DNA from: Pseudomonas maumuensis
GTDB lineage: Bacteria > Pseudomonadota > Gammaproteobacteria > Pseudomonadales > Pseudomonadaceae
NCBI RefSeq assembly: GCF_019139675.1
Contig: NZ_CP077077.1
Coordinates: 4,402,001 to 4,466,000 of the forward strand
Length of the DNA: 64,000 nt
Direction: 5' to 3'
The translations under genes and the position numbers were made by a program. The notes under the pieces were generated by a model. That model made no database searches. It saw nothing but the letters and a program-made list of their open reading frames with translations, and was not told the DNA's origin. Of this stretch, positions 26,667 to 27,497 are shown piece by piece; position 1 is the first letter of the stretch, and each line of letters begins with the position of its first letter.

Positions 26667-27497
26667 TCAGAAGTGCCAGGTCCAGATATCGATAGGCTTC
26701 TGGTCGGGATTGATCTTGCGGATATGGCGATAGGTTGGCTGGAAGCCGAAGCGCGCCCATACCGGTTTCTCGTCGAGGATGGCGATGCCGCCGTTGGCCT
26801 GCAGGCGCAGCACCGCGCTGGCATGGCCGCCGGTGTGCGAATGCCACAGCACGGCGTTGCCGGCACCGTAGACCACCAGGTTGCCGTCACCCTGGAACAC
26901 CGCGCGCACAGCGCCCTTGCCTTGAGTGCCGGCGTTCCAGGTGGCCGCGCCGTTCGGGCCATAGGCCACGAGATTGCCGTCGCCCTGGAACACCAGCTTG
27001 CTGGTGCCCGCGCCATATACCACGCCCTGAACCAGCTCGGAGCCAGGCGCCAGCAGCAGCGAGTCCACCGCGCCAGGCACCAGCGGGATAGCCGACGTGC
27101 CGTTCCACAGCGCCAGGGAGTCGACCAGCACAATGTTGCCGTCGTCCTGCAGCACCAGGTGGGTGCGGTTCCACTGGTCGTTGCTGGTGAAGGTGCTGTT
27201 GTTGGTCAACCACACCCGGCGCCGTGAGTAATCGTCGAGGAATGCGCCGTACTGCACGTAGAACGCCAGCGGGGCCTTCTTGTTGCGCAGGGGGACGGTC
27301 GAGCTGAAGGGTTGCTGTTCATTGGCGACCCAGACGGTGGCGCCGTTGTCCTGGATCACCAGGTTGCCATCGCCCTGTAGCAGCAGCTTGAAGCGCTGGT
27401 TGGGCGACAGCAGGTACTGGCCCGCCGACAGGGTCTGATAAGCGGGCAGCACCGAAGTGCCGACGCCGTTGAAAGGAATGCGGGTACGACCTGCCAT
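26667..27497 (-). CDS. llpA: Lectin-like bacteriocin LlpA, putidacin L1-like
   Basis: A 276-residue protein of two tandem monocot mannose-binding lectin domains. QxDxNxVxY-type motifs lie at residues 41-49 (QGDGNLVIQ), 117-125 (QDDGNIVLV), 171-179 (QGDGNLVAY) and 202-210 (QGDGNLVVY), with a degenerate one at 233-241. The C-terminal extension ends IDIWTWHF. Length and sequence recall putidacin L1 closely (from memory). LlpA proteins kill related pseudomonads selectively by binding D-rhamnose LPS and acting at BamA. No signal peptide and no immunity gene, as usual. AGGAG sits 7 bases before the ATG, 10 bases after the Com-like gene, so it is in the tailocin operon and probably released by its lysis genes. 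Confidence 0.95.

What the first reader, a model, noticed from the sequence alone, without database searches (positions are those of the whole stretch)
26667..27497. Lectin-like bacteriocin (putidacin L1 type) encoded inside an R-tailocin operon
The llpA gene lies 10 bases after a Com-like gene and 63 bases before the tail genes, on the same strand, with its own Shine-Dalgarno but no visible promoter or terminator. The sequence shows two mannose-lectin domains with QxDxNxVxY motifs. LlpA proteins have no lysis gene of their own, so using the tailocin holin, endolysin and spanins would explain their release. The target cell would meet two weapons of different receptor type at once. Bacteriocin cargo in Pseudomonas tailocin clusters has been reported; co-expression and shared release are my inference.
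Basis: partly seen in the sequence, partly recalled or inferred. Interest (0 to 1): 0.85.

Follow-up and report, generated by a model that had tools for sequence, protein, structure and literature searches.

The report
Com-type RNA switch before bacteriocin gene
A known antibacterial lectin gene sits inside a phage-tail weapon cluster, as already reported for relatives, but just before it lies a conserved RNA element, which I did not find described, that looks like a binding site for the small regulator made next door; copies of it also precede other genes of the cluster, including the cell-bursting enzyme.

Summary
In detail: window 26667-27497 (minus strand) encodes a 276-aa protein ~98% identical to putidacin L1, 10 nt after a 62-aa Com-like gene, in an R-type tailocin between mutS and cinA. 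llpA as tailocin cargo, the com gene before it and release by borrowed lysis genes are already in print (PMC6240691, PMC5277000), so the finding as stated is mostly known. I add two things. (1) The last ~70 nt of com is an RNA element of three hairpins with covariation, synonymous constraint (0.22 of expected against 0.82 upstream) and conservation across a frame change. Two hairpins carry the SELEX motif of Com, CC(N)2-3GAG. The element precedes 28 of the 29 best-matching llpA loci, intact com 22 of 29. Com-less copies precede unrelated genes; this cluster has three copies, before llpA, a 110-aa gene and the endolysin. (2) Three mutS-cinA loci keep repressor, com-llpA, holin and endolysin but have lost all or nearly all tail genes, which supports shared lysis. 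Best reading: a Mu com/mom-like translational switch for tailocin cargo. Com binding is untested, the window's llpA leader lacks the predicted SD-sequestering fold, and one published com-stop mutant showed no effect.

The parts
29716..32289 (+). mutS, left flank of the tailocin
   Evidence: Pfam MutS domains
28532..29422 (-). S24-peptidase/HTH repressor (PrtR-like)
   Evidence: Pfam and PHROG
28374..28402 (-). promoter-like site upstream of holin-com-llpA-tail genes
   Evidence: 1 found, 0.3 expected; consensus match only
27722..28141 (-). holin ORF (superfamily III); start probably GTG at about 28069
   Evidence: PF16085; start judged by eye
27508..27696 (-). com-like gene, 62-aa zinc-ribbon protein
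   Evidence: PF10122
27529..27600 (-). Com-type RNA element before llpA: SL1 27575-27587 (loop not canonical), SL2 27554-27567 (CC-GAC-GAG), SL3 27533-27546
   Evidence: CM R1 E 6.7e-11, (this sequence is one of the 79 in the model); coordinates
26667..27497 (-). llpA, lectin-like bacteriocin, putidacin L1 orthologue
26107..26604 (-). phage protein phrog_1072 (function unknown), first gene after llpA
25550..26320 (-). baseplate spike gpV ORF (start probably near 26104)
   Evidence: PF04717
25488..25553 (-). com-less Com-type element, mostly intergenic, SL2 25512-25527 and SL3 25492-25505 kept, SL1 lost
   Evidence: CM R1 E 2.5e-6; not in the model's training set
25126..25458 (-). 110-aa all-beta protein of unknown function, a second cargo ('GKHF' family, my label)
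   Evidence: no Pfam, PHROG or NCBIfam hit; AlphaFold2 mean pLDDT 90.8
23208..25022 (-). baseplate genes gpW, gpJ, gpI
20411..23272 (-). tail fibre and a protein of phrog_8983 (function unknown)
18641..20330 (-). tail sheath and FII tail tube
   Evidence: PF04984/PF17482, PF04985
13824..18628 (-). assembly chaperone, tape measure, gpU, gpX, gpD
13643..13714 (-). Com-type RNA element on a 5'-truncated com copy before the endolysin; SL1 13689-13701 (loop not canonical), SL2 13668-13681 (CC-CAT-GAG), SL3 13646-13661
   Evidence: CM R1 E 1.2e-17, (in the training set); com remnant from model position 19
13063..13614 (-). GH19 endolysin
   Evidence: PF00182, phrog_181
12616..12825 (-). Rz1-like spanin
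   Evidence: PF06085
10162..11825 (-). cinA and recA, right flank

Best explanation
llpA is a cargo gene of an R tailocin and travels as a com-llpA cassette. The 3' end of com doubles as a cis-acting RNA element upstream of the llpA start. Com, a zinc-ribbon RNA-binding protein, binds hairpins of this element (CC(N)2-3GAG in a loop closed by C-G) and activates translation of the next gene, as Mu Com does for mom. In about half of the homologues the SL2 hairpin competes with a longer fold that pairs the Shine-Dalgarno with the SL2 sequence, so binding would free it. Com made here could also act in trans on the com-less copies before the 110-aa gene and the endolysin. Transcription would start at the SOS-regulated tailocin promoter, and LlpA would leave through the tailocin holin, endolysin and spanins. 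Shown: gene identities and order, the RNA element with covariation, its motif match, its copies. Inferred: Com binding, direction of regulation, co-transcription, lysis release.
For: Covariation on 79 elements: 89.8% of cells paired (shuffled 80.8%, slid 28-46%), 83 both-side changes against 29.3, covariation score 0.246 against 0.116, each 0/500 shuffles; on 26 com-less or com-remnant copies 95.0% against 86.4%, 27 against 6.6, 0/500. RNAalifold predicts SL1 and SL2 unaided. The SELEX motif CC(N)2-3GAG of H. sputorum Com (PMC6483171 passages) is in SL1 of 87 of 103 and SL2 of 102 of 103 non-redundant elements, against 7.2 and 9.5 in dinucleotide shuffles. Synonymous differences 0.22 of expected in element codons, 0.82 in ribbon codons, 63 coms; 12 of 102 coms ('VEPR') keep the nucleotides in another frame. 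Element before 28 of the 29 best llpA loci, intact com before 22 of 29. SD pairs with the SL2 region P 0.53 against 0.20 shuffled over 91 elements. 108 of 109 genomes with an element also have a com match; 0 of 273 other genomes of the class match (stricter filters). Loci without or nearly without tail genes keep repressor, com-llpA, holin, endolysin.
Against: A premature stop in com did not change levan production from lscB in P. syringae (PMC3899960 section 2.6; data not shown there). In the window the llpA leader has a non-canonical SL1 loop, no SD-SL2 pairing (P 0.00) and ordinary folding energy (z 0.25); the endolysin leader has neither (P 0.01, z -0.27). One covariation measure on the 79 elements, pairs with any both-side change, was reached by 34 of 500 shuffles (9 against 7.0). 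Published TSS work places a promoter upstream of com, which explains mobility without translational control (PMC3973379, PMC3899960 passages). Mu itself does not match the model. The com-element co-occurrence is partly built in, since most elements overlap com. No RNA-seq or binding data were available.
Confidence: 0.62

Rival explanations
1. The com 3' end is only a recombination seam or part of a mobile promoter cassette (PAPE). Similarity before unrelated genes reflects cassette exchange, and com plays no role in translation. (The rivals are not exclusive of each other, so confidences do not sum to one.)
For: PAPE (~450 bp with com) is described as a mobile promoter upstream of lscB/C and a glycosyl hydrolase (PMC3899960, PMC3973379 passages); com stop without effect. 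Unrelated genes behind com show that cassettes are exchanged.
Against: Solo copies keep little beyond SL1 to SD, with unrelated DNA upstream; compensatory pairs in com-less copies; nucleotide conservation across a frame change and low synonymous change in the element but not the ribbon.
Confidence: 0.2
2. The element is a real RNA switch in many relatives but has decayed in this cluster. Here llpA is simply translated from the tailocin transcript, with com a passenger.
For: SL1 loops of the llpA and endolysin leaders deviate, no SD-SL2 pairing, z near 0; the P. putida-type llpA copies score low, 48-52 bits, against about 92 for the best elements.
Against: The SL2 box is intact in all three window copies; a related cluster (G102, L135/L234) keeps an intact com although most of its llpA is gone, together with the elements before the 110-aa gene and the endolysin.
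Confidence: 0.25
3. llpA has its own constitutive promoter and LlpA leaves by another route, independent of the tailocin.
For: Constitutive LlpA production reported for BW11M1 and Pf-5 (PMC6240691); 14 of the 29 best llpA loci show no mutS or cinA within the ~10 kb held.
Against: No promoter-like site between holin and llpA in the scan; UV and recA dependence; loci without a tail module keep llpA with the lysis genes.
Confidence: 0.15
4. The lectin is a tail or fibre accessory that gives the particle sugar binding, not a soluble bacteriocin.
For: Position inside the tail operon.
Against: ~98% identity to putidacin L1, studied as a soluble bacteriocin; all but gone from the otherwise similar cluster L135; present in loci without a tail module.
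Confidence: 0.03

Closest known systems
LlpA/putidacin L1 lectin-like bacteriocin of Pseudomonas mosselii BW11M1
   Same: Nearly the same protein (~98% identity, 276 aa). Lectin-like bacteriocins as cargo of Rp2 tailocins are in print (PMC5277000 passages), and a com gene before P. mosselii llpA is in Figure 4 of PMC6240691 (legend read).
   Different: Little in the gene itself. Whether BW11M1's own llpA lies at the same place I did not see. The RNA element is not mentioned in the passages I read.
Phage Mu com-mom translational activation
   Same: Com family (PF10122), Com site inside the com 3' region just upstream of the target start, CC(N)2-3GAG hairpin closed by C-G (Mu stem AUGC/GCAU).
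   Different: Two tandem box hairpins plus a third stem; many unrelated target genes; com-less copies that would need action in trans; no CM match to Mu.
PAPE, phage-associated promoter element of P. syringae lscB/C
   Same: com upstream of levansucrase and glycosyl hydrolase genes, mobile, also noted near a DC3000 bacteriocin gene.
   Different: PAPE is defined as a ~450-bp promoter at the DNA level; the element here is the ~70-100 nt RNA part next to the start codon, and it also occurs without com upstream.
Group A colicin operons (toxin plus lysis gene)
   Same: Toxin and lysis functions in one locus, clearest in L253 and L263, and L068.
   Different: The lysis genes are a holin-endolysin module of tailocin origin, not a lysis lipoprotein (colicin side).

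Membership tests
LlpA lectin-like bacteriocin | Tandem B-lectin domains over the full family profile | tested here: met
   NF033557 over residues 9-276, 376.9 bits, cut-off 275; PDB 3m7h full length. Pfam reports one B_lectin stretch only
LlpA lectin-like bacteriocin | No immunity gene and no signal sequence | tested here: inconclusive
   The genes on either side are com and phrog_1072; N-terminus read by eye only, no signal-peptide program available
LlpA lectin-like bacteriocin | Kills pseudomonads through LPS and BamA | not testable with these tools
   Needs kill assays
R-type tailocin | Contractile tail genes without integrase, terminase or capsid, with lysis genes | tested here: met
   No integrase, terminase or capsid hit among the proteins scanned between mutS and cinA; not every ORF was scanned, and some have only unknown-function PHROG hits or none. 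PHROG names the tube 'head closure' but Pfam calls it FII tube
R-type tailocin | Particles kill related strains | not testable with these tools
   Needs induction and microscopy
Mu-type Com translational activation | Com-family zinc-ribbon protein next to its target gene | tested here: met
   PF10122 53.4 bits, cut-off 22.9; 10 nt before llpA
Mu-type Com translational activation | Com site: CC(N)2-3GAG hairpin upstream of the target start | tested here: met
   SL2 of all three window copies; the SL1 loops of the llpA and endolysin copies do not fit. SELEX was done with another bacterium's Com
Mu-type Com translational activation | Translation-inhibiting structure covering the target's ribosome site | tested here: not met
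   Window llpA and endolysin leaders: SD-SL2 pairing P 0.00 and 0.01; 0.60 for the 110-aa gene; 51 of 91 elements exceed 0.5 against 13 of 91 shuffled
Mu-type Com translational activation | Com binds the RNA and raises translation | not testable with these tools
   Needs gel shift and reporters; one published com-stop test was negative for lscB

The most novel reading that the evidence does not exclude
Pseudomonas tailocins and prophages carry a mobile, trans-acting translational regulon. One Com protein, encoded with the first cargo, switches on every gene that carries a ~70-100 nt tandem-box Com element: bacteriocins (LlpA, ColM), small all-beta cargos, secreted proteins and the tailocin endolysin, so that toxin output and cell lysis are timed together by one RNA-binding protein.
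Probability: 0.45. Interest if true: 0.8.

Novelty: new variant of a known kind. Interest (0 to 1): 0.62.

Why it matters
PMC6240691 names the role of the com gene before most llpA genes, and the route of LlpA release, as open questions. The element gives a concrete, testable target for Com beyond mom, offers a reason why com travels with unrelated cargo, and predicts a list of genes that can be searched for in any Pseudomonas genome. The loci without a tail module show that the llpA-lysis pairing can survive loss of the tail, which strengthens the shared-release hypothesis.

Tried and rejected
Rfam had no family for the element in window 12000-30000; one weak rsmX hit below its gathering score at 28492-28579. 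The tail-accessory reading of LlpA was rejected. A covariation test of the SD-sequestering fold was not made: in the aligned subset its two sides are conserved within the main class, and the endolysin and some other classes differ. The 110-aa cargo could not be assigned: Foldseek best E 4.3e-3, to a phage capsid protein, others TNF/C1q-like, none at 1e-3; no relative in the phage collection. A first RNAalifold run on a looser alignment found only a fragment of SL1.

Rows dropped: of 148 com-like frames, 6 failed the anchor, one of them the window's own com, added back to give 143; 103 non-redundant; 79 of 103 aligned (the 24 left out were chosen by eye, mainly methylase-linked phage coms and rows with indels). 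Of 188 regex candidates 139 overlapped profile hits, 91 non-redundant within length limits. 'Intact' com means a profile start at position 8 or less, so a few damaged copies count as intact. In one search, 79 of 102 coms fitted the gapless anchor, 63 non-redundant; expected values use codon usage of six genes of the window's tailocin; the LNH codons between the two regions gave 0.46. The list is cut; its tallies are not. The locus scan kept 80 of 398 relatives. Many loci are the same genomes as in the model. Shuffle and Wilcoxon results ignore relatedness.

The statement that the element is undescribed rests (open-access PMC listings only), word searches in two surveys of bacterial structured RNAs (no levansucrase, bacteriocin or prophage; 'com' only in web addresses). 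Ghequire 2015 (Genome Biol Evol), the key paper on these tailocins, and Parret 2003 are not held and were not seen; a paper on a phage-derived levansucrase regulator that I recall was not found.

Full report
What is there. The ORF at 26667-27497 is on the minus strand and encodes a near-identical orthologue of putidacin L1. It lies in an R-type tailocin between mutS (29716, plus) and cinA/recA. Order on the minus strand: S24 repressor, promoter-like site, holin, com, llpA, phrog_1072, gpV, a 110-aa gene, gpW, gpJ, gpI, fibre, phrog_8983, sheath, FII tube, chaperone, tape measure, gpU, gpX, gpD, endolysin, Rz1. com ends 10 nt before llpA, and llpA ends 62 nt before the next gene. The scan of 26400-28700 gave one sigma-70-like site, upstream of the holin, and no minus-strand terminator; a terminator-like hairpin seen by eye at 28140-28163 lies upstream of the holin.

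What was already known. The review PMC6240691 (passages, section 10) states that llpA genes are often cargo of tailocins and prophages, that about 90% (P. aeruginosa excepted) are preceded by a com-like gene (PF10122), that the role of Com remains to be explored, and that LlpA may leave by lysis piggybacking. PMC5277000 (passages) attributes lectin-like bacteriocin cargo in Rp2 tailocins to Ghequire 2015, which is not held. PMC2647930 (passages) describes llpA1 with the mutS-recA prophage of Pf-5 and suggests prophage control. PMC4832159 (whole text) notes that BW11M1 makes both LlpA and an R tailocin. PMC6465234 and PMC3390384 were seen in passages only. The finding as written is largely published.

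The RNA element. PF10122 matches occur in 119 of 398 Pseudomonas genomes. I fetched DNA around nearly all of them and looked at what follows com in 102 rows: LlpA, secreted proteins of about 193 and 213 aa, a 320-aa protein, a ~110-aa family, levansucrase-like and other proteins, phage genes (the levansucrase and secretion labels are my reading of the sequences and of PMC3899960, not profile hits). Across these unrelated genes the last ~70 nt of com are strikingly alike. Three stem-loops fit: SL1 (AGGC/GCCU), SL2 (UCGC/GCGA) and SL3 (GCGGA/UCCGC). On 79 of 103 non-redundant elements, 89.8% of cells pair, against 80.8% in shuffles and 28-46% in slid structures; both-side changes number 83 against 29.3 and the covariation score is 0.246 against 0.116, each reached by 0 of 500 shuffles; the number of pairs with any both-side change (9 against 7.0) was reached by 34 of 500. 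RNAalifold predicts SL1 and SL2 on its own, not SL3.

It is not just Com coding. Among 91 non-redundant elements with a usable start, 65 overlap intact com, 8 a 5'-truncated com and 18 no com; in 16 of the 18 solo copies the similarity begins at or a few nt before SL1, and 2 lack SL1 (by eye). On the 26 com-less or remnant copies the covariation persists: 95.0% paired against 86.4%, 27 both-side changes against 6.6, 8 pairs against 3.4, each 0 of 500. In 63 intact coms, synonymous differences are 0.22 of expectation in the codons of SL1-SL2 and 0.82 in the zinc-ribbon codons. Twelve of 102 coms read VEPR in place of the usual residues because of an added base in the SL1 loop, yet keep the nucleotide motifs.

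Link to Com. SELEX with a Haemophilus sputorum Com zinc finger, followed by binding tests, gave 5'-CC(N)2-3GAG-3' in a hairpin loop closed by C-G, and the Mu mom site has it (PMC6483171, passages; Mu sequence). SL2 carries this box in 102 of 103 elements and SL1 in 87 of 103, against means of 9.5 and 7.2 in dinucleotide shuffles. Genomes with an element at E<=1e-3 number 109 of 396, and all but one (G037, E 3.1e-4) are among the 119 with a com match; since most elements overlap com this is partly built in. In the class-level sample only the window's own genome of 274 matched (stricter filters). I did not test binding.

Switch. In the consensus form the Shine-Dalgarno and the bases before it pair with the SL2 sequence, capped by SL3 (folding z -3.7 to -4.1 for three consensus-like examples that I picked). 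Over 91 elements the mean probability of SD-SL2 pairing is 0.53, against 0.20 when the stretch between SL2 and SD is shuffled; 51 of 91 exceed 0.5, against 13 of 91. Forcing the SL2 hairpin raises the mean chance of a free SD from 0.21 to 0.32; it frees the SD by more than 0.2 in 42 of 139 and hides it in 3 of 139. So SL2 and the inhibitory fold exclude each other in about half of the members, not all.

In this window. R1 finds three copies: before the endolysin (E 1.2e-17), before llpA (6.7e-11) and before the 110-aa gene (2.5e-6); two weaker matches (0.051, 0.18) are taken as chance. The first two are in the model's training set; the third is not, is com-less and has lost SL1. A fourth lies elsewhere on the chromosome before a 101-aa protein, 32% identical to the 110-aa one. 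SL2 boxes are intact in all three, but the SL1 loops of the llpA and endolysin copies are not canonical, and neither leader shows SD-SL2 pairing (0.00 and 0.01; the 110-aa gene 0.60). The llpA leader folds no better than shuffles (z 0.25; endolysin -0.27; 110-aa gene -1.98). Com control of llpA in this strain is therefore an inference from relatives.

llpA across genomes. A scan of named genomes kept the best 80 of 398 relatives. The 29 best (L248-L276) are titled Pseudomonas except L250, titled Pantoea, whose contig length equals that of G345 of this genus. The element (profile match, E<=0.01) lies within 70 nt upstream of the llpA match in 28 of 29 and intact com in 22 of 29; L276, 34% identical, has neither. 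The other 51 loci, 50 from other genera and one partial match in Pseudomonas sp. SDI (L293), have no element. Fifteen of the 29 lie beside mutS or cinA with tailocin homologues. In L253 (P. izuensis), L263 (Pseudomonas sp. Irchel s3h14) and L068 (unnamed G005) the mutS-cinA interval is only about 4 to 6 kb: repressor, com-llpA, holin, endolysin, with no tail module in L253 and L263; L068 keeps a few small fibre-assembly-like and tail fragments, judged by eye. In G102 the tailocin keeps an intact com and the elements before the 110-aa gene and endolysin, while only the first codons of llpA remain. The colicin M gene of the Q8r1-96 tailocin also has the element, behind a damaged com.

Against. 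A com stop mutation had no effect on lscB expression (PMC3899960 section 2.6); that strain may carry other com copies, since the same paper finds com at other loci, but this is my caveat. PAPE work locates the transcription start upstream of com, so part of the mobility has a transcriptional reason. Mu does not match R1. Many sequences are related, so shuffle counts are not probabilities.

Verdict. The given finding is real but mostly known. I did not find the Com-type element described in the open-access searches named in Tried and rejected; it is a new variant of the Mu com/mom kind of control. The loci that lost the tail module give independent support for shared lysis.

Noticed in passing
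window 25126-25458 (-): A second cargo gene inside the baseplate genes: a 110-aa all-beta protein (AlphaFold2 mean pLDDT 90.8) of a family often found behind Com elements, with no Pfam, PHROG or NCBIfam match.
   Followed up: partly
window 28140-28163 (-): A terminator-like hairpin with a T run lies between the promoter-like site and the holin; a similar one is seen by eye in the Q8r1-96 tailocin (L328 about 2070-2107). It may be an attenuator of the whole tailocin operon. Not listed by the scan.
   Followed up: no
L135 about 3245-3270: In a related tailocin (G102) only the first few codons of llpA remain between com and the next tail gene, which looks like a deletion scar; com itself is intact.
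   Followed up: partly
L063 7789-11300: A series of cargo genes in one locus (320-aa protein, LlpA, 109-aa and 213-aa proteins), each with its own element, only the first with intact com.
   Followed up: partly
G000:C1:3704844-3704904 (-), L227: A solo element about 0.7 Mb from the window precedes a 101-aa relative of the 110-aa cargo.
   Followed up: partly
window 28492-28579 (-): Weak Rfam rsmX match (34.7 bits, gathering 56) just downstream of the repressor gene, probably a terminator hairpin.
   Followed up: no
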